From Streptomyces zaomyceticus (GTDB lineage: Bacteria > Actinomycetota > Actinomycetes > Streptomycetales > Streptomycetaceae), in contig NZ_BNBZ01000016.1 of assembly GCF_014656215.1 (NCBI RefSeq), positions 62,001 to 126,000 of the forward strand: 64,000 nucleotides of DNA, given 5' to 3'. The notes beneath the pieces were generated by a model. That model worked only from the letters and a program-made list of their open reading frames with translations. It was not told where the DNA came from and did no database searches. The translations under genes were made by a program, and so were the position numbers. Below are positions 7,647 through 18,964 of the stretch, one piece after another; the stretch's first letter is position 1; each line of letters starts with the position of its first letter.

Positions 7647-8969
7647 TCAGTCGCTCCGGACGAGCGGTTCCAGGGCCTCGGACACATGCCACGCGCCGTA
7701 ACCGAAGCGCTCGCCGAGCGTGCGGAAGCGGACGTACCGCTCCTCGGTGAGGGGGACGGCGAGGACGGCGAGGAGGCGTACGAGCAGCCGGAGGCCGAGG
7801 TCCGGGTCGACCTCGGTGACGACATGCGCCACGGCATCGGCCGCGACCGCTCCCGGGAGGGGGTGCGCGTGCGGACTCACCGTGCGGCGCGCGAGATCCG
7901 GCGTCAGTTCGCGGAGCAGGTCCTGGACGGCGCCGCTGTGTCCGGTCCGGACCGGGAGTGTGCCGGGCCGGTGGTCGGGGGCGACTTCGGCGAGGTGGTC
8001 GCGGCAGGCCGCGGCGATCGTCCGGAGCCACTCCCTGCCGTCCGCGCCCGCCCTCTCGATGTCGTAGCCCCGCTCCGACGCGGCCCCCCACAGGGTGACG
8101 ATCACGGCGGTGGGCAGCGGGGACTCCAGGAGCCGGAGGGCGTCCTGGAGCAGCGCGGCCGCCGCGGAGCCCGGGGTCTGTCCGGTCTCGTCGTCGGCCA
8201 CGGCAAGCGCCAGGATCTCGCGGGGCGTGTGCGCGTGCCAGGGTCCGGCGAAGCGGGACGCGAGCGCGGTGAGGCCGAAGTCCCCCTCCGCGTCACGCCG
8301 GGTGGGATCGACGGGCGGCCACCGTACGGCGAGGTCGTCGTAGACGAGTGGACCCGGGTACGCGAGGCGCTCGTCGAGCGCCATCAGCCGGTCGTACTGC
8401 GCCTTCCCCACGGTGATGCGACGGACCTTGAGGACCCGGAGGAGCAGGCGCAGGGCCAGGTCCGCGTCGGCCTCCGTGGCGATCGACTCCAGCGCTCCCG
8501 GAAGGCCGGCGAACGGCGGGGCCACGAAGGCGCCCCCCTCGGCGGCCGACGCCCGGATCTCGGCGACGACGTCCTCGCGCAGGTCCGCCTCCTCGATCAC
8601 GGGCGGGGGCAGGAGGGACCAGTGCCGAGGTGTCCTCTCCCGGGCGCGGGCCGGGTACAGCTCGGCGAGCCGGCGCAGCCGGCCGCGGAAGTCCGTGCCG
8701 TGGCCGGCCGGGTCGAAGCGCCCTCCCGTGGCCGCCCGCCACACCGTGCGCAGCGCCTCGTCGGGCACGGCCGAGTCCAGCAGGAGCCCCAGGTCCGTTC
8801 CGAGTTCGACGGCGCCCTCCCCCTCGCCGAGCCCGGCCACGTCCGCGGCGAGGCCCAGCACCGTCGACGGGTCGACGGGTCCGGAGGAGGCGTGGACGCG
8901 CGCGGCGAGCGCGCTGAGACCGAAGTCCCCCTCGTAGAAGGCTCCGTACGCCTCGCGTTGTCTTGCCAT
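7647..8969 (-). CDS. Two-domain hypothetical protein, candidate immunity protein
   Basis: A 440-residue soluble, acidic, helix-rich protein with no signal peptide and no recognised family. It is an internal duplication. EGDFGLSALAARV (residue 13) matches EGDFGLTALASRF (about 226), and a later pair reads ALRLLLRVLKV...YDRLMALDERLAYPG against GLRLLVRLLAV...YVRFRTLGERFGYGA. It lies directly downstream of the polymorphic toxin gene on the same strand. That is the normal place for the cognate immunity gene, which would bind the toxin tip in the cytoplasm. A perfect hairpin (9004-9035) separates them, so it may also have its own promoter. The start has AGAGGAAG upstream. The immunity role is inferred from position only. 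Confidence 0.75.
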   Translation of the reverse strand: MARQREAYGAFYEGDFGLSALAARVHASSGPVDPSTVLGLAADVAGLGEGEGAVELGTDLGLLLDSAVPDEALRTVWRAATGGRFDPAGHGTDFRGRLRRLAELYPARARERTPRHWSLLPPPVIEEADLREDVVAEIRASAAEGGAFVAPPFAGLPGALESIATEADADLALRLLLRVLKVRRITVGKAQYDRLMALDERLAYPGPLVYDDLAVRWPPVDPTRRDAEGDFGLTALASRFAGPWHAHTPREILALAVADDETGQTPGSAAAALLQDALRLLESPLPTAVIVTLWGAASERGYDIERAGADGREWLRTIAAACRDHLAEVAPDHRPGTLPVRTGHSGAVQDLLRELTPDLARRTVSPHAHPLPGAVAADAVAHVVTEVDPDLGLRLLVRLLAVLAVPLTEERYVRFRTLGERFGYGAWHVSEALEPLVRSD

Positions 8970-9003: not shown

Positions 9004-9035
9004 ACGGGCCCGCTCCGTCGGAGGAGCGGGCCCGT
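9004..9035. terminator. Strong hairpin between toxin and immunity genes
   Basis: Perfect 13-bp stem (9004-9016 with 9023-9035) and 6-nt loop, located 69 bp after the toxin stop and 35 bp before the immunity start. It looks like an intrinsic terminator or attenuator for the leftward toxin transcript. Confidence 0.7.
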
Positions 9036-9103
9036 CGTCATGCTCGGCCGGCGATCAGGTCACCGGCCTCCGGCCCTCGGCCTTCGTACACCGAGGGGAT
9101 CCG

Positions 9104-12100
9104 TCAGACCGGATACGCCGTGTAGACGATGAACCCGTCGTGTCCGGTCTGTCGCGGCAGCCTCTTGAGCACCAGCCTGACCTCGTTCCCGGCTGCGACC
9201 CAATTGCCTTCGGTGTCGTACACCTTCCCGAGCGACTCGTGCTTGTCGTACCTGCCGCTGATGGGGAACTCGTCCTTGTTCCGCCACTGGCCCCGCTTGT
9301 TGAGGAAGTTGTCCAGGGCCGTGAAGCTGGCCTCCCGCCTGTTGCCGTTCGGGAAGAAGTAGTACTGGATGACGGCGTTGACCGCGTCCTGCGCGACGTC
9401 CTGGTCGGTCCAGACGGTGCTGATCGGCGCCAGACCCTTGAGCTCGTTCTGGAGCGCGAAGGCCTTGGCCTGCTCGGGCGTCACGTTGACGTGGCGGCTG
9501 AGCGTGTGCGCCCCGCTGTTGGGGAAGTCGATCTCGTCGGTGAGCTTCGCGCAGTTGTGGACCAGGAGGTCCTTCGCCCGCTGCCCCTCGGCGCGCACAT
9601 AGAACGTGTGCAGGCCCTCGACCGTCAGGTCGTGGACCTCGCGCGGAACGAGACCCGCGCGGTCCCGCAGCCCGGTGACGGCGAGCGTCGAGCCGCCGGG
9701 GGTACGCAGGGTGTCGCCCGTGCGCAGCGCGGAGACGAGCGTCCAGTCGCGCCCCTCGACGTACACCCGGTGTCCGGCGGTGCTCGTCAGGACGGACCCG
9801 TCGGCGAAGGTGATGTCGACGAGCCGGTCGGTGTCGTGCGCGTAGGTCGCGGACACCGTCTGGGAGCGACGCTCACCGCTGTCCGGGTCCGCCGCCAGGA
9901 CGCGGTCGCCGACGCGCACGTCGGCGATCGGCTTGTGGCTGCCGTCCGCCATCAGCACCCGGGTGGTTCCCGGGAAGCTGTTGCGCGCGCAGGACGTCAG
10001 CAGGTCCTCGTAGAGGTTGACCGTGTTCTCGAGCCGCGCGAGGGTCGCCGGGTCCAGCCCGTCGAGCGCCTTGAGCGTCTTGAACGCGTCCCGGACGCCG
10101 ATCCCGGTGTTCAGCGCGGCGTGGAGCGCGGTGATCGCCTCTCCGACCTTGGCGAACGCCTTGCCGGGGATGAAGTTGCTCGCGGCCCAGGCACAGCCGC
10201 CGGCGCTGCCCTTCCAGCAGTCGATGAAGTCCTGCAGCAGGGCGGCCTTGATGACCTTGTAGACAATCGTCTCCTCGATGAGGTCCCACTTGCTGAAGTA
10301 GCGGGTGACCTCCTTCTTCAGCCCCTTGAACGCCTGCCGCTGGAACGGCAGCGTGTCCTCGGACGGGCAACCCGCGGCCGTGGCCGGCACGTTCGGGTTG
10401 GTGCACATGAAGAAGTCCACCTCGACGTCGAAGGTGACGTCGAACGTGACCGTGCAACCGATCCAGCCGGGCTCCAGGACGCAGGGGGCCCGCTGCTTGG
10501 AGTCGGTGACGTTGAGGGTGCTCTCGTCGACGACGAAGAACGTGCCCCCGACCCCGCCCGTGCCCGCGCCGTCCGCGATCTGCTGGTTGGCCTGCTTCCG
10601 GGCCGCGGAGTCGGCTGCCTGCTGCGCCTCCTTGGCGTACCTCAGCGCGTCCTTGGCGGCTTCCTCCGCCTCGGTCGCGGCGGCGTCGGCGCGGTCGGCC
10701 GCGGCGCGGGCGTCCTTGGCGGCCTGCTCGGCGGCGGCAGCCGCGGACCGGGCGCCCTCGGCGTCCAGAGCCGCCTGGTCGGCGGAGTCGCGGGCGGCCC
10801 TGGCATGGCCCTCCGCGCGTCCGGCAGCCTTGTCGGCCGCGGCGGCGTCCTCGCCGGCCTGACGGTCCCACTCGACCGTACGGGTCAGGGACTCGGCCGC
10901 CTTGGCCGCGGCACGGGCGGCGTCGGCCGCGTAGCCGAGGGCCTCCTTGGCGTAGCCGCGTGCGTCGGCCGCGTGTCCGGCGGCGTTGGCGGCGTGCACG
11001 TACGCCTGCTTGGCCTCGCCGGTGGCCGCGTCCGCGATGGCCTTGGCGGCGGCCGCCTCGTCCTTCGCGTTCTCGGCGTGGGCGTCGGCGACGGCCTTCT
11101 GCTGTTCGGCGATGGTCTTCGACGCCTGACCGGTCAGCACGACCAGGCCGGCGGCGGAGTCCGTCGTCACATACGGCGAGCCGAGCTGGATCGCGTCGTT
11201 GGCGGGCTGGGCGACCTGGGAGGCCGAGTTCCCCGCGTCCACGGCCGCCTGGGCCGTGACATGGGCGAAGCCCGCGGCCTCGGCCGCGGCGGCCAGGGCC
11301 TTCGCCGCCTCCTTGTTCGCCTCGTCCGCGTGGGTCTTGGCCTCCTTCGCCCTGGCTTCCGCCTCGTCGGCGAGCTTCACGGCGGCCTTCGCCGCGTCGG
11401 CGGCGCGCTGTGATGCCTTGAGGGCGTCGGCCACGGCGCTGGTCGCGGTCTTGACCGCCGCCTCGGACTTGAGCTTGGCTGCCTGGGCCGCGTCCGAGTC
11501 GGCACGGGCCCGTCCCGCGGCGGCCTCGGCGCGCGTGGCGGCGGCGTCCGCCTCGGCTGCGGCCTCCGTCGCGGCGTCGGCCTCGCCTCGGGCCCGGCCC
11601 GCGGCGGCCTCGGCGTTGTCCGCGTGGGTGTCCGCGGCGTCGGCGGCCTCCCGGGACGACTGGGCGTGCTCGTCCGCCTTGTGCGCCTGGGCGAAGGCCT
11701 CCTTGGCGTCCGCCTTGGCGCGGGCGGCGTCGGCCCGCTGCTCGGCGGCCCAGGCGTCGTCCCGCAGCTCGCGGGCCTTGTCCTTGGCCTTCACCGCGGC
11801 GTTCTTCTTCTCGACCGCGGTGCCCTCGGCGGATTCGGCGAGCTTCCTGGCGTCCTGCGCCTTCACCGCCTCCGCCTCGGCGCTCTTGCGGTGCTGGGCC
11901 GCCTCGCCCTGCTTGGCGACGGCGGTCAGCTTCTCCTTCTCGGCGGTCTTCTCCTCCGCCTCCGCGGACAGCCGGCGGGCACGGGCTTCGGCGGCAGCCG
12001 CCTTCGCGTCCGCCTCCGCCTTCACGGCGACGGCGAGCTTGGCCTCGGCGGTCTCCTTCTCCTGCTTGGCCGTGTCGCGCTGGAACTTGGCCCCGTCGGC

Positions 12101-14032
12101 GGCGGCCTTGGCCTGCAACTCGGCGGCGCGGGCCGCCTCCTTGCGGAACTCGGCCTTGGACAGGGAGGCCTGGGCGAGCGCGCGCTGCGCGATCGTCTCG
12201 CTGTCCGCGGCGGCCGCCCGGGTGGCGGCCTCGGCGGTCTCGCCGGCCTTCACCATCGCGGTGAGCGCGGCGGAGACACCCTTGGTGACCTGGGCCTTCT
12301 GCAGACCCACCAGCAGTCCGCGGCCTCGCGGAGCACCCGTGGAGTCGGCGATGCCGTACGCGGCCTGCTCGGCGGCGTCGGAGGCGGCCACGGCCGCCAC
12401 GACGGCGGCCGCCTGCTGCTTGATGATCAGCAGCTGCGCCTTCGCGCCCGCCCGGGCGTCCGCGATGCCCTTCGCCGCCTGGTCGAAGTGGGCCTTGGGC
12501 TGCACCTCGCCCGTGTTGCCGGAGGGCTTGATGGTGAGCTGCTGCGGGCCGGTGCTGTTGCAGGTGGCGAGCAGCGCGTCCCTGCCGAGGTCGTACGTCG
12601 GGAAGTTCAGGCACTTGCCCGAGCCGACGTTCTTCAGCGCGGTGGTGGCGCGGGGGGTGTACGCCCAGGTCTGCGCCGCGGAGCTGTTGCACGTGTAGAG
12701 CTGGATCTTCGTGCCGACCGCCGTGCCCCCGCCCGCGACGTCGAGGCAGGTCATGGACTTGACGTTGCGCAGGTGCAGACCGTGGTCGTCACCCTCCATG
12801 CGCCACTTCTGTCCGGCCCCGCCGTGGCAGGTGTAGACCTGGACCGCGGTGCCGTTGGCGGTTCCGCCGCCCTGGGACTCCAGGCACTTGCCCGGTGCCG
12901 CCTTCAGCTCGATCGTCGACTCGGCGTCACCGATCCAGCCGACGCCGCCCGCGGACCAGTGGTCCTGCCAGCGGGTGAGGTGGTCGGCGACCCAGGAGTG
13001 GCCGAGCATCTGGCCCAGCGCCCTCGAGCCGGTCGCGAGCGCCTTGGTGGCGCTCTCGCTCATGTTGACGATCCGGTTCCGCTGGGCGGCCTGGGCGGCG
13101 ATCTCCTGCTGCCACTCGGCGGCGGCCGTGCCGCCGACGGGTCCGAGGACCTTGTTCGGGTCGATCGCGTCGCGCCAGGCGCAGGTCGAGTACCGCGTCT
13201 TCATGTCCTCGACGGCGATGCGGAACTCCGCCGTCCCCGGGGCGGGGGCCGTACGGGGGAAGCCGCCGGCGGCGAGGAAGAGCCGGGCGTTGTCGGCGCC
13301 CGTGGGCTCGAAGGTGGCTTCCTTCAGCCACTTGAAGCCCTCGTGCTCGGCTCCGTCGCGATACCAGTCGGTGCTGGTCTGCGGGTCGGGGGGCGTGCCG
13401 TAGCGGGGGGTGCCCAGGTCGGTGACGGCCTTGCGGGTCTTCTCGTCGGCCTTCGGCGTGGGATCGACGTAGAAGTCGCCCTCGTCCTTCCAGAACCGGT
13501 CGGCGATCCACTTGGTCAGGCCGGTCTGGGTGTGGAAGTCCTCGCCCTCGCTGATGCCGGGCGGCCAGTGGAAGGTGGCGTCGTTGATGCCCGCCGGGGT
13601 GGTGAGCCCGTACACGGGCTTCTTCCAGCTCTCGCGGAGAGCGTGGATGTCCGCCAGCTCCTTGTCGGCGGCGGCCTTGTCCTTCTCGAACGCCGTGGCG
13701 AGCGGCGTGTCCTGCCAGTACTTGCGGTCGGCCGCGGTGTGGAGGCCCTCGGGCGGCAGGTCGAGCCCGCTCTTGGCGACGGCCGCCATGGCGGGTCCGC
13801 CCACGCGCAGCACCTCGGCCATGAGGCACTGGTCCTGCCGCAGTTGCTCGGCGGCGGTGTCCGTGTACCAGTCGTAGTCGTTGCCGACCGTTCCCATCCG
13901 CGGGGCGGTGGGGAGGCCGGGCTGGACGGCAAGGCCGCCGAGCAGGGCCAGGCCGACCACGGAGGTGGTCAGTGGGCTGAGGATCGCGGAGAACCGCGGT
14001 CCGGATGCGAACATCCTTGGTCTGGAACGCAA
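9104..14032 (-). CDS. Secreted polymorphic toxin: ricin lectin, coiled coil, Hint and RNase A-like C-terminus
   Basis: A 1642-residue secreted toxin. A Sec-type signal peptide is followed by a Trp/Lys-rich N-terminal domain. A ricin-type beta-trefoil (about 371-504, CLES/CLDV/CLNF and QKW/QTW repeats) probably binds cell-surface sugars. About 640 residues of Ala/Lys/Glu-rich coiled coil follow (about 510-1157), then a Cys-containing linker. A Hint autoprocessing domain (about 1347-1494) runs from SCARNSFPGTTRVLM to LLVHNC. The last 148 residues are the toxin tip: HTLSRHV at its start and VYTAYP at the end match the bacterial CdiA-CT RNase A-like fold, suggesting tRNA/RNA cleavage. The start chosen is TTG at 14032, with AGGA seven bases upstream; ATG at 14014 is the alternative. 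The neighbour at 7647-8969 is the likely immunity gene. Confidence 0.85.
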   Translation of the reverse strand: MRSRPRMFASGPRFSAILSPLTTSVVGLALLGGLAVQPGLPTAPRMGTVGNDYDWYTDTAAEQLRQDQCLMAEVLRVGGPAMAAVAKSGLDLPPEGLHTAADRKYWQDTPLATAFEKDKAAADKELADIHALRESWKKPVYGLTTPAGINDATFHWPPGISEGEDFHTQTGLTKWIADRFWKDEGDFYVDPTPKADEKTRKAVTDLGTPRYGTPPDPQTSTDWYRDGAEHEGFKWLKEATFEPTGADNARLFLAAGGFPRTAPAPGTAEFRIAVEDMKTRYSTCAWRDAIDPNKVLGPVGGTAAAEWQQEIAAQAAQRNRIVNMSESATKALATGSRALGQMLGHSWVADHLTRWQDHWSAGGVGWIGDAESTIELKAAPGKCLESQGGGTANGTAVQVYTCHGGAGQKWRMEGDDHGLHLRNVKSMTCLDVAGGGTAVGTKIQLYTCNSSAAQTWAYTPRATTALKNVGSGKCLNFPTYDLGRDALLATCNSTGPQQLTIKPSGNTGEVQPKAHFDQAAKGIADARAGAKAQLLIIKQQAAAVVAAVAASDAAEQAAYGIADSTGAPRGRGLLVGLQKAQVTKGVSAALTAMVKAGETAEAATRAAAADSETIAQRALAQASLSKAEFRKEAARAAELQAKAAADGAKFQRDTAKQEKETAEAKLAVAVKAEADAKAAAAEARARRLSAEAEEKTAEKEKLTAVAKQGEAAQHRKSAEAEAVKAQDARKLAESAEGTAVEKKNAAVKAKDKARELRDDAWAAEQRADAARAKADAKEAFAQAHKADEHAQSSREAADAADTHADNAEAAAGRARGEADAATEAAAEADAAATRAEAAAGRARADSDAAQAAKLKSEAAVKTATSAVADALKASQRAADAAKAAVKLADEAEARAKEAKTHADEANKEAAKALAAAAEAAGFAHVTAQAAVDAGNSASQVAQPANDAIQLGSPYVTTDSAAGLVVLTGQASKTIAEQQKAVADAHAENAKDEAAAAKAIADAATGEAKQAYVHAANAAGHAADARGYAKEALGYAADAARAAAKAAESLTRTVEWDRQAGEDAAAADKAAGRAEGHARAARDSADQAALDAEGARSAAAAAEQAAKDARAAADRADAAATEAEEAAKDALRYAKEAQQAADSAARKQANQQIADGAGTGGVGGTFFVVDESTLNVTDSKQRAPCVLEPGWIGCTVTFDVTFDVEVDFFMCTNPNVPATAAGCPSEDTLPFQRQAFKGLKKEVTRYFSKWDLIEETIVYKVIKAALLQDFIDCWKGSAGGCAWAASNFIPGKAFAKVGEAITALHAALNTGIGVRDAFKTLKALDGLDPATLARLENTVNLYEDLLTSCARNSFPGTTRVLMADGSHKPIADVRVGDRVLAADPDSGERRSQTVSATYAHDTDRLVDITFADGSVLTSTAGHRVYVEGRDWTLVSALRTGDTLRTPGGSTLAVTGLRDRAGLVPREVHDLTVEGLHTFYVRAEGQRAKDLLVHNCAKLTDEIDFPNSGAHTLSRHVNVTPEQAKAFALQNELKGLAPISTVWTDQDVAQDAVNAVIQYYFFPNGNRREASFTALDNFLNKRGQWRNKDEFPISGRYDKHESLGKVYDTEGNWVAAGNEVRLVLKRLPRQTGHDGFIVYTAYPV

Positions 14033-14357: not shown

Positions 14358-15662
14358 TCAGGCGATCAGCAGGCCGATGCCGCCGAGGGTGTACGCGATC
14401 ATCAGCGCGAACAGCGGGAGTTGACCGGCGACGGCGCGGGCGGGCGGGAAGAGGCGCACGGACCGGTCGTGGGCGGCGACGACACCGAGGACGTGGCCGG
14501 TGACGATCGCGGCGACCTGGAGCGTCGCGAGGCCGGCGGGACCCAGGAGCGGGGCGGGTGCGGAGGCGTTGTCAGTGCCCCCTGCCATGATGACTGTACG
14601 TGGCCCTTCGGTGACGAAGAGTGAGAAGTAGTGGGCGACGAGATAGCCGAGGGCGATGGGCAGGAGCGAGTGGGCGAAGGAGGTCAGCGGGGTGGTGAGG
14701 GAGCGGTTCATCAGGCGCAGGGCGCCCGCGCAGAGTCCGTAGCAGGCGGCGGCGAGGGCGACGGCGGCGAGGAGGCCGAGTGTGGCGGTGGGGGTGGGGC
14801 CGAGCGAGGAGGTCTGGAGGGTGGTGATCCAGCGGGGGTTGTCGGAGAGGCCGTCGTAGGCGGTGGAGCCGAGGAGGACGCAGACGGTGGCGACGAGACC
14901 GGGGGTCGCGGGGGTGGCGTCGAGGCCGTGGAAGGGCGAGCGCAGGACCAGTCGGCCGTCGGCGCGGCGGCCGAGCGGGGAGAGCCGGGCGAGCAGGGAG
15001 GAGTAGACCTCGAAGGGATCGGCGTGGGCGAACCAGCGCTCGCCGTGGCGGGCCGCGCCGGCGAGCTGGACGCCGCAGTGGAGGGCCAGGGCGGTCAGAA
15101 GGGTGGCGGAGGAGGTGTTGTCGGGGGCGACGAGTTCGAGCCAGGTGAAGAGGAGGAGCCCGACGGCGGCCGGCCGGATGCCGACCGCGGCGGGCAGGGG
15201 GCGGGGGTTCCGCGGCGGGTGCAGGGCGTGGAGGGCGCGCAGGGGGTTGACGAGGCGCCAGACGGGGCCGAGGAGGAGGGAGGCGGGGACGAGTCCGACC
15301 CAGAACAGGACGTAGACGGCGCCGGGTGCGGGGTTGCGGTCCGGGTCGTCCGGGCCGAGAAGGAGGTGGAGGAGGAGGACGAGGCCGGCGGCGGCACCGA
15401 GGAGCCGGAGGGCGGTCCGGGTGGCGGGGGCGTCGGCGAGGCGTTGGAGGGCGGCGGGAAGGGGGCGTCCCGACAGGTCGCCGCGGAAGCGTGAGGTGGA
15501 CCAGAGCAGTCCGAGGGCGAGGAAGGAGATGAGGAGCGCGGCGAAGGCGCCCGCGTAGGCGTAGAAGGGCGAGAGGGGGAGGTCGTGCCGGGAGCCCACG
15601 CCGTGGGCGAGCGGAAGGCCGAGCTCGGCGGCGTGGGCGGCGTGGGTGGGGAGGCCGGTCAT
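14358..15662 (-). CDS. Polytopic membrane protein, third gene of the beta-helix/cupredoxin operon
   Basis: A 434-residue protein with about ten hydrophobic segments and no recognised family motif. A conserved-looking cytoplasmic stretch contains ERWFAHADPFEVYSSLLARLSPLGRR (about 203-228). Other segments include LVAHYFSLFVTEGPR. It overlaps the preceding lipoprotein gene by 4 bp (ATGA), so the three genes 14358-18873 form one transcript. The partner, a cupredoxin-like lipoprotein, makes a metal- or redox-related envelope role plausible, but nothing in this protein itself (no CXXC, no His cluster) proves it. Function unknown. Confidence 0.8.
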   Translation of the reverse strand: MTGLPTHAAHAAELGLPLAHGVGSRHDLPLSPFYAYAGAFAALLISFLALGLLWSTSRFRGDLSGRPLPAALQRLADAPATRTALRLLGAAAGLVLLLHLLLGPDDPDRNPAPGAVYVLFWVGLVPASLLLGPVWRLVNPLRALHALHPPRNPRPLPAAVGIRPAAVGLLLFTWLELVAPDNTSSATLLTALALHCGVQLAGAARHGERWFAHADPFEVYSSLLARLSPLGRRADGRLVLRSPFHGLDATPATPGLVATVCVLLGSTAYDGLSDNPRWITTLQTSSLGPTPTATLGLLAAVALAAACYGLCAGALRLMNRSLTTPLTSFAHSLLPIALGYLVAHYFSLFVTEGPRTVIMAGGTDNASAPAPLLGPAGLATLQVAAIVTGHVLGVVAAHDRSVRLFPPARAVAGQLPLFALMIAYTLGGIGLLIA

Positions 15663-16654
15663 CGGACGACGAGTTGGGTCAGGAGGAGTCCGGACCCGTG
15701 GGTCTCCACCTCGAAGAGGCCGGTGCGGTCCGCGACGAGGGTGAGGGTCGCGGTCGTGCCGGGAGAGAGGGGCAGTTCGCGGTCGTAGCCGTGGACATGG
15801 AGGGTGTCGGCGCGGTCGCCGGTGACCCGGAGGGTGAGGCGTTCGCCCTTCTTCAACTCGATGCGGGAGGGGGGTGGCGAGACGGTCTTTCCGCTGATGG
15901 TGAGGGTGACGGTCCGGCCGGGGTCGGGTGTACGGGAGGCGGTCGGGCGGGGGCTGGTGGGCGGCGAGGCGGGGGGTGAGCCGGGGGGCGCGGACCCGGT
16001 GGGAGTGGGTCCGGTGGGGGTCGGCCCGGTGGGGGTGCCGTTGAGGCGGACGGTGGTCTGGACGGGGGCGCCGGCGGCGGCCCAGACCGTGTGGTCGTCC
16101 GCGTGGAGCCGGACGGTCAGGGTGTGGGCGCCCGCCGGTACGTACCCCCAGGGCCCGTAGAGCCGGGTGAACTCCCGGCCGTCGACCAGGAGGCGGGCAT
16201 GGCCCCGGCCCGGGAGGGCCGCGCCGCCGGTGCTCTCGGGGGTGAACCGGAACCTCTCCACGGTGAGGTGGACGTTCCAGCCGCCCTCGCTGTCCGGGCG
16301 GGCCTCGGCCCTGACGGTGGGCGCGTCCGCCGTCGGAAGCTCCCTGAGCCGGTGCCCGCCCTCGTCCCGGGCCGCCAGCAGGGTGCCGCTGGTCCCGGTG
16401 GCCTCCTGATGGCTGGTACCGGGCTTGTGATGGGTGGTGGCCCGGCCGCCGCAGCCCGCGAGGGACAGTACGGCGGCCAGGACGAGCACCAGGGGTGCTG
16501 TCGCTACGGGCGACCGACGGGCCCGCACCGCCGCCCTGGACCCGGACGCGCGCGGGTGCGGGCGTGGGTTCGGGTGCGAGTTCGGGTGCGGGTGTGGGTG
16601 TGGGTGTGGGTGCTGGTGTACGCGCGGGTGCGGCTGTGGATGGGGCTGCGTCAT
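15659..16654 (-). CDS. Cupredoxin-like lipoprotein with a His-Pro-rich N-terminus
   Basis: A 331-residue exported lipoprotein. The N-terminus is odd: before the signal helix lie about 35 residues with repeated HP dipeptides (residues 5-34), a potential metal-binding tail on the cytoplasmic side. The lipobox is LSLAGC (about 70). A first extracellular domain carries HARLLVDGREF and LYGPWGYVPAGAHTL. A Thr/Pro linker with PTGPTPTG repeats follows, then a C-terminal cupredoxin-like domain (about 245-331, with LHVHGYDREL, LVADRTGLFEVE and LLLTQLVV). The His of HVHGYD could bind copper, but the Cys and Met ligands of true blue copper proteins are not evident. It starts in a 4-bp ATGA overlap with the beta-helix gene. 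Confidence 0.82.
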   Translation of the reverse strand: MTQPHPQPHPRVHQHPHPHPHPHPNSHPNPRPHPRASGSRAAVRARRSPVATAPLVLVLAAVLSLAGCGGRATTHHKPGTSHQEATGTSGTLLAARDEGGHRLRELPTADAPTVRAEARPDSEGGWNVHLTVERFRFTPESTGGAALPGRGHARLLVDGREFTRLYGPWGYVPAGAHTLTVRLHADDHTVWAAAGAPVQTTVRLNGTPTGPTPTGPTPTGSAPPGSPPASPPTSPRPTASRTPDPGRTVTLTISGKTVSPPPSRIELKKGERLTLRVTGDRADTLHVHGYDRELPLSPGTTATLTLVADRTGLFEVETHGSGLLLTQLVVR

Positions 16655-18873
16655 GCCGGTCCCTCTCCGTGCGGTCGTGCCTCGGTGTGCCCGGAGCCGG
16701 ACTCCTGCCCCGGCCTGGGCTCCGGCACGGAGGCCGAGCCCGAGGCCGGTCCAGGTGCCGGGGCCGAGGCGGAGGCGGAGGCCGGGGTGGAGGCGGAGGC
16801 CGGGGCCGGATCGGGGTCGGGGCCCGGCTCCGGATTCCGTTCCCGCTGCCGTTCTCCTTCCGCCGTGTGCGGGGTGCGGGCGCCCGCCGCGACCACGGCC
16901 CACAGGACCCAGACGATGCCGAGCAGGAGGCGGAGCCAGGCCGGGCCGACGGGGATGCCCGGGACCATCAGGACCGCCTTGTCGAAGGCGTCGAGCAGGG
17001 TGAGGGCTCCGAGGGCCACCGTGGTCCGGGCGAGAACGGGGCGGGTGGGGCGCAGGGCGAGGCCTAGGAGGGTCCACCACAGGCCGGTGAGCAGCAGGGC
17101 GAGGGCCGGGACGGCGGTCGGGGTGAGGGCGAGGGTCGAGCCGGCCACGTCGAGGCCGAGACCGGCGAAGCCGATGAGCGTGGCGGCGCCCGCGAGCCGG
17201 CTGCCGCGCAGTCGGCGCCACCAGAGGGCGAAGCCCGCCAGGGCGAGGACGAGGGAGCTGCCGAGGGCCAGTTGGGTCTCGACGCGCTGGAGGCCGCGGG
17301 CGCCGTACCAGTCGCAGCCTGCCGGGAGGCGGCGCGCCTGCACGTTGTAGTCGGCGCAGACGAGGAGCTGGGCGAGTTTCACGGGTTCGCCGACGAGCCG
17401 GTCGGTGTTCCCGGAGACGTCGCCTCGGCGCGCCCCGCAGCCGGGCAGGGCGCCGGGAGAGGAGGCGCCGGTGTCGGTCTGCCAGCAGTTGCCGCTGCCC
17501 TGGCCGTCCCACCAGACGTCGCTGCGGTTGGGGCGGGCGTTGCCCGCCCTGTCGACGCCGAGGCGGTTGCCGGCGTAGCGGTTGTGGTGGGAGGTGTCGG
17601 TCTGTTTGCCCCAGTCGGACTCGCCGCGGATGAAGGCGGGGACGGCGCTGAGGTAGAAGGCGGCGCGCTGGTGGCCGTAGACCCAGTTGTTCTCGTAGAG
17701 GTTCCAGTTGCCGCCCGCGGTGATGATGCCGGTGCCGGGGGGCATGGAGATCTGGGGGCAGACGACGCCCTGTTCGTAGCCGCGTTCGACGGGCGGTTTG
17801 GCGCAGGTGCCGTCGGCGACGTACCGGTAGTAGTTCTGGTTGTTGTCGTGGATCAGGTTGCGTTCGAAGCGGGCGTGGTTCTGCGGCAGTCCGGGGTGGC
17901 CGGGGAAGGCGGAGTCCATGGACGCGCCGCCCATGTTGTGGTCGAACTCGTTGTCGTGGACGTGGACGGAGTCGCCCGCGGTGCCGGAGTAGCCGACCAT
18001 GTTGTGGTGGCTGCGGCAGCCGGTGATCTCGATGGAGTAGCGGGGGACGTCGTAGCCGCGGCCGTCGTTGATGTCCGAGGCGGAGCCGGGGTAGATGCCG
18101 GAGTCCCCGTTGCCGTAGGACTCGCAGTTCTTGTAGAGGCCGTGGTCGGAGGCGAAGGTGAGGAAGCCGTACTCGTCGTTCCAGCGGGTGAGGACGTCGT
18201 CGATGACGAAGCCGTCGGCGGCGAGCACGTACAGGGAGTTGAACGTGGTGCGCTGGGCGGTGAAGTTGCGGAAGTAGACGCCGTCGGTGCCGTCGGCCCG
18301 CAGGGCGTTGAGCTTCTGGTACTTGGCGTCGATGACGACGTCGAGGCGTGAGGCGCCGGTGCCTTCGATCTGGAGGTTCTTCTTGCCGAGGATGGCGACG
18401 AGGTTCTGGTTGTGCGGGCACTGCCGCTGCTGTTCGTAGCTGAGGATCTGGTAGCCGAGCGCGGACCTGGGGGCCTTGAGCGTGGCGCAGGCTCCGGTGG
18501 GCGGGGGCAGCGAGGGCTCTTCCTCGTAGAGGCCGGGGAGGATCGCGATGGTGAGGCCGGGTCGGTCGACGGCGTCGACGGCCTGCTGGAGGTGGCGGTG
18601 GCCGGTGCGGGCGCAGCGCTCGTAGAGGGCGAGGTTCCGGGCCTTGAGGGTGGCCGGGAAGCCGGAGATCCGGCGCTCGAAGTCGGCGCGGTCGGTCTTG
18701 CAGACGAGGATGTCGGGTTCTCCGGTGCGGAGCTTCGGCACGCTGCCGGAGCCGTCGGGGAAGGTGACGGGCCGCTCCTCGTGGGCCTGGGCCCCGGGTG
18801 CGGTGAACAGGGCCGCGGCGAGTGCCGCGAGCACGACCGTGAGCGCGAGGACGAACCTTCGGGTCCAGGACAT
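16651..18873 (-). CDS. Secreted right-handed beta-helix protein with C-terminal membrane helices
   Basis: A 740-residue protein. The signal peptide ends about AQA-HE (residue 34). A long parallel beta-helix region (about 70-480) is rich in NxxY/xxNxIHDNN-type coils ([33 protein letters not shown]) and 14 or so Cys. About four membrane segments follow (about 520-660), then a Pro/Ala/Glu low-complexity tail. Such helices bind or cleave polysaccharide; no catalytic set is evident here. It is the first gene of a three-gene operon with a cupredoxin-like lipoprotein and a membrane protein. The start ATG at 18873 precedes [11 protein letters not shown]; no good ribosome site is visible, so the start is less certain. 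Confidence 0.85.
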
Positions 18874-18964
18874 GCGCGTGAGAGTAGAGCATTGTTCATC
18901 TTTTTTGACCCCCTCGCGCAGCACCCGGTTCGCGGGCGCCCCGCCACCGGGGACCGTTGCCCCG

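What the first reader, a model, noticed from the sequence alone, without database searches (positions are those of the whole stretch)
9104..14032. 1642-aa secreted polymorphic toxin with lectin, coiled-coil stalk, Hint and RNase A-like tip
Seen: signal peptide, three Cys-Leu/QxW lectin repeats, about 640 residues of Ala-rich coiled coil, a Hint domain bounded by SCARNSF and VHNC, and a 148-residue tip with HTLSRHV and a terminal YTAYP. Known: Hint domains release C-terminal toxins, and the CdiA-CT RNase A-like family has a His near the start and a T-x-Y motif at the end. Inference: a contact or diffusible antibacterial ribonuclease carried on a sugar-binding stalk, exported by Sec and not a type VII or V system.
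Basis: partly seen in the sequence, partly recalled or inferred. Interest (0 to 1): 0.7.

Follow-up and report, generated by a model that had tools for sequence, protein, structure and literature searches.

The report
Streptomyces lectin-stalk toxin with RNase tip
A soil Streptomyces carries a gene for a large secreted protein, probably an antibacterial weapon, that joins a sugar-binding head, a long helical stalk, a self-cutting domain and an RNA-destroying tip; relatives on the same stalk carry many different tips, and the next gene encodes the probable antidote.

Summary
In detail: a minus-strand gene (9104-14032, TTG start, 1642 aa) encodes signal peptide, ricin-type lectin, Ala-rich coiled coil, Hint domain and a 148-residue tip. 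The tip matches Pfam RNAse_A_bac (E 3.3e-11), and its AlphaFold model matches the CdiA-CT RNase of Yersinia kristensenii (PDB 5e3e, Z 10.4; next hit 4.2). This chassis occurs in 80 of 296 sampled Streptomyces genomes and in sister genera, with at least nine tip clusters. All 22 distinct RNase A tips are followed by a homologue of the 7647-8969 protein; none of 29 other tips is (Fisher p 6e-15). Tip and immunity distances correlate; tip and N-terminal-domain distances do not. Two relatives about 97% identical in chassis diverge after residue ~1150 and carry different Hint, tip and immunity genes: a natural cassette swap. So it is a genuine polymorphic toxin system, probably antibacterial. A conserved stalk break is shared with two ALF-repeat (umbrella-type) proteins, but ALF repeats and partner genes are missing. 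The parts are known; I found no description of this combination. Toxicity, RNase activity and cell entry are untested.

The parts
9104..14032 (-). toxin gene, 1642 aa, TTG start
   Evidence: open frame, conserved N-terminus, domains by Pfam
13904..14032 (-). signal peptide or N-terminal anchor (residues 1-43), Sec-like, no twin-arginine motif
   Evidence: hydrophobic stretch conserved in relatives; cleavage site not tested
12938..13900 (-). all-helical N-terminal domain (residues 45-365), two invariant Cys (69, 284), no Pfam family
   Evidence: AlphaFold mean pLDDT 82.8; no convincing PDB match
12539..12961 (-). ricin-type beta-trefoil lectin (residues 358-498)
   Evidence: Pfam PF14200 E 4.9e-27, PF00652 E 6.5e-23
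10595..12481 (-). Ala-rich coiled-coil stalk (residues 518-1146)
   Evidence: composition; most conserved part of the family, median identity about 0.7
11171..11206 (-). conserved stalk break PANDAIQLGSPY (residues 943-954)
   Evidence: present in nearly all members and in one ALF-type protein of this genome
9998..10585 (-). pre-toxin region (residues 1150-1345), start of the exchangeable cassette
   Evidence: identity falls sharply at about residue 1150 between near-identical chassis
9551..9979 (-). Hint domain (residues 1352-1494): Ser1352, TAGH motif, C-terminal HN and Cys1494
   Evidence: PT-HINT E 6.4e-17; alignment of 34 Hint members
9104..9550 (-). RNase A-like tip (residues 1495-1642), no Cys; conserved His1509, His1514, Thr1638
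   Evidence: RNAse_A_bac E 3.3e-11; fold match 5e3e Z 10.4; 22-member alignment
7647..8969 (-). immunity protein, two tandem domains of about 210 aa, distantly CdiI_2-like
   Evidence: follows every RNase A tip and no other tip; CdiI_2 17.1 bits here, 28.2 bits (over cut-off) in relative L096
9005..9034 (-). GC-rich hairpin between toxin and immunity genes, without a T run; possible terminator or attenuator
   Evidence: sequence and fold; conservation not tested

Best explanation
This is a secreted polymorphic toxin with its own immunity gene. The protein leaves the cell by a Sec-like route. The lectin binds a surface sugar on a neighbouring cell, and the helical stalk holds the C-terminal cassette away from the head. 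The Hint domain cuts at Asn1493-Cys1494 and frees the RNase A-like tip, which enters the target cell and degrades RNA. The producer and its kin are protected by the tandem immunity protein encoded next door. Pre-toxin, Hint, tip and immunity gene move between chassis as one cassette. Shown here: domain make-up, RNase A-like fold of the tip, tip-immunity linkage, cassette exchange. Inferred: export, sugar binding, cleavage, entry, RNase activity and antibacterial effect.
For: RNAse_A_bac E 3.3e-11. Fold match to 5e3e: Foldseek E 6.6e-6; Z 10.4, rmsd 3.3 over 111 residues, next hit Z 4.2, mammalian RNases about Z 3.5-3.8. His1509 and His1514 in 22 of 22 tips, Thr1638 in 21 of 22. At least nine tip clusters on one chassis, including XOO_2897-like deaminase, Ntox27, Colicin D and Tox-REase-5. 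Immunity homologue adjacent to 22 of 22 distinct RNase A tips and to none of 29 others. Tip-immunity rank correlation 0.53 (Mantel p 0.0005), tip to N-terminal domain 0.06. Chassis about 97% identical but cassette 15-82% per block in one pair, boundary near residue 1150. Hint with TxxH, C-terminal HN and following Cys.
Against: No experiment. The counterpart of the catalytic Arg of the Yersinia enzyme (R186, PMC9086364) is not identifiable from sequence, and Tyr1640 is Phe or His in some tips. The Hint nucleophile position is Ser, so cleavage efficiency is uncertain. How a tip crosses a Gram-positive wall and membrane is unknown. About two fifths of the members compared show no Hint match and a few show no lectin match, so neither is needed for every version.
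Confidence: 0.78

Rival explanations
1. A single-chain cousin of the umbrella toxins: the stalk descends from the same stalk as ALF-repeat (UmbC-like) proteins, but the ALF ring with its separate lectin partners is replaced by a helical head and a lectin in the same chain.
For: The stalk-break profile scores 40.8 and 46.4 bits in two ALF-type proteins (L109 of this genome, L129), above the best of 260 shuffled controls, 26.1. More distant relatives carry two head-plus-coil modules, as UmbC carries two ALF sets and two coiled coils (PMC11062931).
Against: Eleven of the 13 ALF-type proteins score 18-29 bits, close to shuffles. Head-to-ALF profile comparison is weak, probability 12%. No convincing PDB match of the head. 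Coiled coils can resemble each other by composition. Compatible with the best explanation rather than opposed to it.
Confidence: 0.35
2. The protein acts on eukaryotic neighbours (amoebae, fungi, insects) rather than bacteria: the lectin binds eukaryotic glycans and the RNase kills those cells.
For: Ricin-type lectins often bind eukaryotic glycans and RNase A-like enzymes can act in any cytoplasm (general knowledge, not tested here).
Against: A dedicated immunity gene accompanies every RNase A tip and coevolves with it, as expected when close kin are targets. Streptomyces umbrella lectins bind surface glycoconjugates of other Streptomyces (PMC13274773).
Confidence: 0.12
3. A secreted scavenging or defensive extracellular RNase that works outside cells and is not a weapon.
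For: Secreted protein with an RNase-like domain.
Against: Other tips on the same chassis include deaminase, Colicin D and Ntox27 domains, toxin families expected to act inside cells; an adjacent immunity gene without a signal peptide would be pointless.
Confidence: 0.05

Closest known systems
[quoted passage not shown]
   Same: tip family, fold (Z 10.4), no Cys in the tip, His plus C-terminal T-x-Y motif, adjacent immunity gene of a family distantly related to CdiI_2
   Different: delivery part: no CdiA filament or CdiB, instead lectin, stalk and Hint in a Gram-positive; immunity protein here is a tandem duplication
Streptomyces umbrella toxins (UmbC)
   Same: secreted by Streptomyces; long coiled-coil stalk with Hint and variable toxin at the end; lectins (PMC11062931, PMC13274773); stalk-break motif shared with two ALF-type proteins
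   Different: no ALF repeats by Pfam, no twin-arginine motif, no conserved partner genes; lectin in the same chain
RHS or other polymorphic toxins with RicinB and HINT domains (PMC3482391)
   Same: adhesion domain plus Hint plus exchangeable toxin plus immunity gene
   Different: helical head and coiled-coil stalk instead of RHS repeats; an RHS-RicinB-Hint toxin is encoded elsewhere in this genome

Membership tests
Polymorphic toxin system | conserved chassis with exchangeable C-terminal toxin domains | tested here: met
   at least nine tip clusters; sharp identity drop at residue 1150
Polymorphic toxin system | tip-specific immunity gene directly downstream | tested here: met
   22 of 22 RNase A tips, none of 29 others; Mantel p 0.0005
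Polymorphic toxin system | tip toxic, immunity neutralises it | not testable with these tools
   needs expression experiments
RNAse_A_bac (bacterial RNase A branch) | profile match above the curated cut-off | tested here: met
   44.4 bits against 27, full profile length
RNAse_A_bac (bacterial RNase A branch) | RNase A-like fold | tested here: met
   AlphaFold model pLDDT 79.8; 5e3e Z 10.4
RNAse_A_bac (bacterial RNase A branch) | catalytic His, Arg, Thr, Tyr of the Yersinia enzyme | tested here: inconclusive
   His1509, His1514 and Thr1638 conserved, Tyr1640 partly, Arg counterpart not identified; residues not superposed
RNAse_A_bac (bacterial RNase A branch) | metal-independent RNase activity | not testable with these tools
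   needs assay
CdiI_2 immunity family | profile match above the curated cut-off | tested here: inconclusive
   window protein 17.1 bits against 26.7; relative L096 28.2 bits
PT-HINT | profile match and intein-like motifs | tested here: met
   62.5 bits against 27.7; TxxH, HN, following Cys; Ser at the nucleophile position
Umbrella toxin UmbC | ALF repeats forming a ring | tested here: not met
   no ALF match in this protein by Pfam
Umbrella toxin UmbC | UmbA and UmbB partner genes | tested here: not met
   no partner gene shared across the flanks of the loci compared; distant orphan umbA genes not sought
Umbrella toxin UmbC | twin-arginine signal | tested here: not met
   no RR motif in the N-terminus
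CdiA (type V, two-partner secretion) | haemagglutinin-type secretion domain, filament repeats and CdiB | tested here: not met
   no such Pfam match in the toxin

The most novel reading that the evidence does not exclude
An undescribed, widespread class of self-contained actinobacterial antagonism protein: sugar recognition, a stalk related to that of umbrella particles and an exchangeable toxin cassette in one chain, with a head domain of new fold, evolving separately from or ahead of the multi-subunit umbrella particles.
Probability: 0.35. Interest if true: 0.65.

Novelty: new variant of a known kind. Interest (0 to 1): 0.52.

Why it matters
About a quarter of the sampled Streptomyces genomes carry this chassis or a distant form of it (80 of 296, 59 of them at E 1e-50 or better), so it may be a common weapon between soil bacteria that has been overlooked. 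It places target recognition and toxin on one gene, unlike umbrella particles, and offers natural cassette swaps, an orphan immunity gene and single versus double immunity proteins with which entry, Hint release and immunity specificity can be tested.

Tried and rejected
Sequence search of the PDB with the tip alone or with its profile did not find 5e3e; the fold search did. PDB search with the N-terminal domain profile and with the stalk found nothing. Foldseek and VIA-align with the N-terminal domain model gave no convincing match (best E 0.95; best Z 5.5 at rmsd 10.1). Head against ALF repeats by profile comparison: weak. PADLOC: no match. The upstream genes (14358-18892) show no recognised secretion role and are not conserved next to the toxin beyond its closest relatives. 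The original 2017 paper on the Yersinia toxin was not held; the review PMC9086364 was used. L067, first joined to the RNase A tips by a weak link, is a Colicin D tip and was taken out. L069 carries a frame break inside the Hint domain and was left out of the counts. No paper that I found in the held library describes this chassis; papers outside it were not searched.

Full report
The observation. The gene lies on the minus strand, 9104-14032, starting at TTG 14032 with a GAAGG eight bases upstream. Pfam finds a ricin-type lectin (residues 358-498) and a PT-HINT domain (1361-1493) in the full protein, and RNAse_A_bac in the isolated 148-residue tip at E 3.3e-11, 44.4 bits against a cut-off of 27. 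The coiled coil, about 518-1146, is 36% alanine.

Residues 45-365 form a conserved domain without a Pfam family. AlphaFold predicts an all-helical domain (mean pLDDT 82.8) with two invariant Cys. Foldseek and VIA-align found no convincing solved counterpart. This domain defines the family: 18 loci in GTDB genomes, 80 of 296 sampled Streptomyces genomes, 59 of them at E 1e-50 or better, and several sister genera.

The tip. AlphaFold gives pLDDT 79.8 with a helix-rich first half and a C-terminal sheet. Foldseek ranks both toxin chains of 5e3e, the CdiA-CT of Yersinia kristensenii, first at E 6.6e-6 and 5.3e-5; nothing else is below 0.09. VIA-align gives Z 10.4, rmsd 3.3 over 111 residues; the next row has Z 4.2 and vertebrate RNases have Z about 3.5-3.8. 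Among 22 tips of the family, His1509 and His1514 are invariant and Thr1638 is kept in 21. The Yersinia active site is His175, Arg186, Thr276 and Tyr278 (PMC9086364); the T-x-Y at the C-terminus fits, Tyr1640 varies, and no Arg counterpart could be named from sequence. The tip has no Cys, and the Yersinia domain has no disulfide bonds (PMC9086364).

A polymorphic family. Splitting the members at the end of the Hint or pre-toxin region gives at least nine tip clusters. Representatives match XOO_2897-like deaminase, Ntox27, Colicin D and Tox-REase-5; others match nothing. Median pairwise identity is about 0.7 in the stalk, 0.59 in the N-terminal domain, 0.52 in the lectin and 0.28 in the tip region. 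Two near relatives, L015 (S. gardneri) and L063, are about 97% identical up to residue 1150 and then fall to about 70% and finally 15% in the tip; L063 and L016 share the other cassette. The exchangeable unit is therefore pre-toxin, Hint, tip and immunity gene.

The immunity gene. The 7647-8969 protein is a tandem duplication (visible; each half matches single-domain homologues). A homologue, single (about 220 aa) or double (about 450 aa), follows every one of 22 distinct RNase A tips within 200 bases and none of the 29 other tips (Fisher p 6.4e-15). Tip and immunity distances correlate (rank correlation 0.53, Mantel p 0.0005), tip and N-terminal-domain distances do not (0.06). L015 has the double form and L063 the single form, so tip and immunity were exchanged together. 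The family is distantly CdiI_2-like: below the cut-off here (17.1 bits), above it in L096 (28.2 bits). A second double homologue stands without a toxin on another contig of this genome.

Hint. Thirty-four members carry it, including all distinct RNase A-tip members; TxxH and the final HN are kept in the RNase A-tip members. Deaminase tips of this family show no Hint match. Cleavage at Asn1493-Cys1494 is an inference from motif and position.

Relation to umbrella toxins. UmbC proteins have ALF rings, two coiled coils and C-terminal toxin domains, one described with a HINT domain, with lectins on separate chains (PMC11062931, PMC13274773). This protein has no ALF match, no twin-arginine motif and no conserved partner gene. 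The stalk has a strongly conserved break, PANDAIQLGSPY. A profile of it scores 40.8 and 46.4 bits in two ALF-type proteins, against at most 26.1 in 260 locally shuffled controls; 11 others are near background. One of the two is in this genome; its ALF matches come, whereas hmmscan of the whole protein listed none at 1e-4. Distant relatives carry two head-plus-coil modules. A shared stalk ancestry is possible but not established.

Mechanism. Shown by computation: domains, RNase A-like tip, cassette exchange, immunity linkage. Inferred: Sec-type export, lectin-mediated docking, Hint release, entry and RNA cleavage in a competing actinomycete.

Limits. Genome handles in the larger sample are unnamed. 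L024/L084 and L029/L098 are the same records in two collections; the count of distinct RNase A tips leaves out L084, the count of other tips still holds both L029 and L098. Gene calls downstream were made by open frame and codon composition, not by annotation. The Mantel test compares single with double immunity proteins, whose length difference adds to the distances.

Noticed in passing
G000 contig C27:86020-87297 (L135): A second, double-length immunity homologue (45% identical) without a toxin gene seen beside it, resembling the immunity proteins of another RNase A tip subtype (L068, L069): a candidate orphan immunity gene.
   Followed up: partly
L076, 994-3758 bases downstream of the toxin stop: A member with a different tip has immunity homologues of the RNase A kind further downstream, suggesting a polyimmunity array or spare cassette; L089 shows something similar.
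   Followed up: no
L103, L104, L105: Distant relatives of about 2550 aa with two copies of the N-terminal domain plus coiled coil and no lectin seen; L103 runs into Hint and an RNase A-like tip: a double-module version of the chassis.
   Followed up: partly
G000 contig C45 (L111) and C36 (L112): Two further Hint-bearing toxins in the same genome: RHS-LaminG-Hint, and RHS-RicinB-Hint with an SsdA-like deaminase end (just under the cut-off).
   Followed up: partly
G000 contig C35:1-9000 (L109): ALF-repeat proteins in two adjacent genes; the 1428-aa one carries a coiled coil with the same stalk break as the window toxin.
   Followed up: partly
L021, L026, L029, L031: Four species carry the toxin between the same flanking genes but with different tips: one chromosomal site, exchanged cassettes.
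   Followed up: partly
window 9005-9034: A strong GC-rich hairpin without a T run between toxin and immunity genes; the ATG at 9041 lies just before it, so the immunity start at 8969 is more likely.
   Followed up: partly
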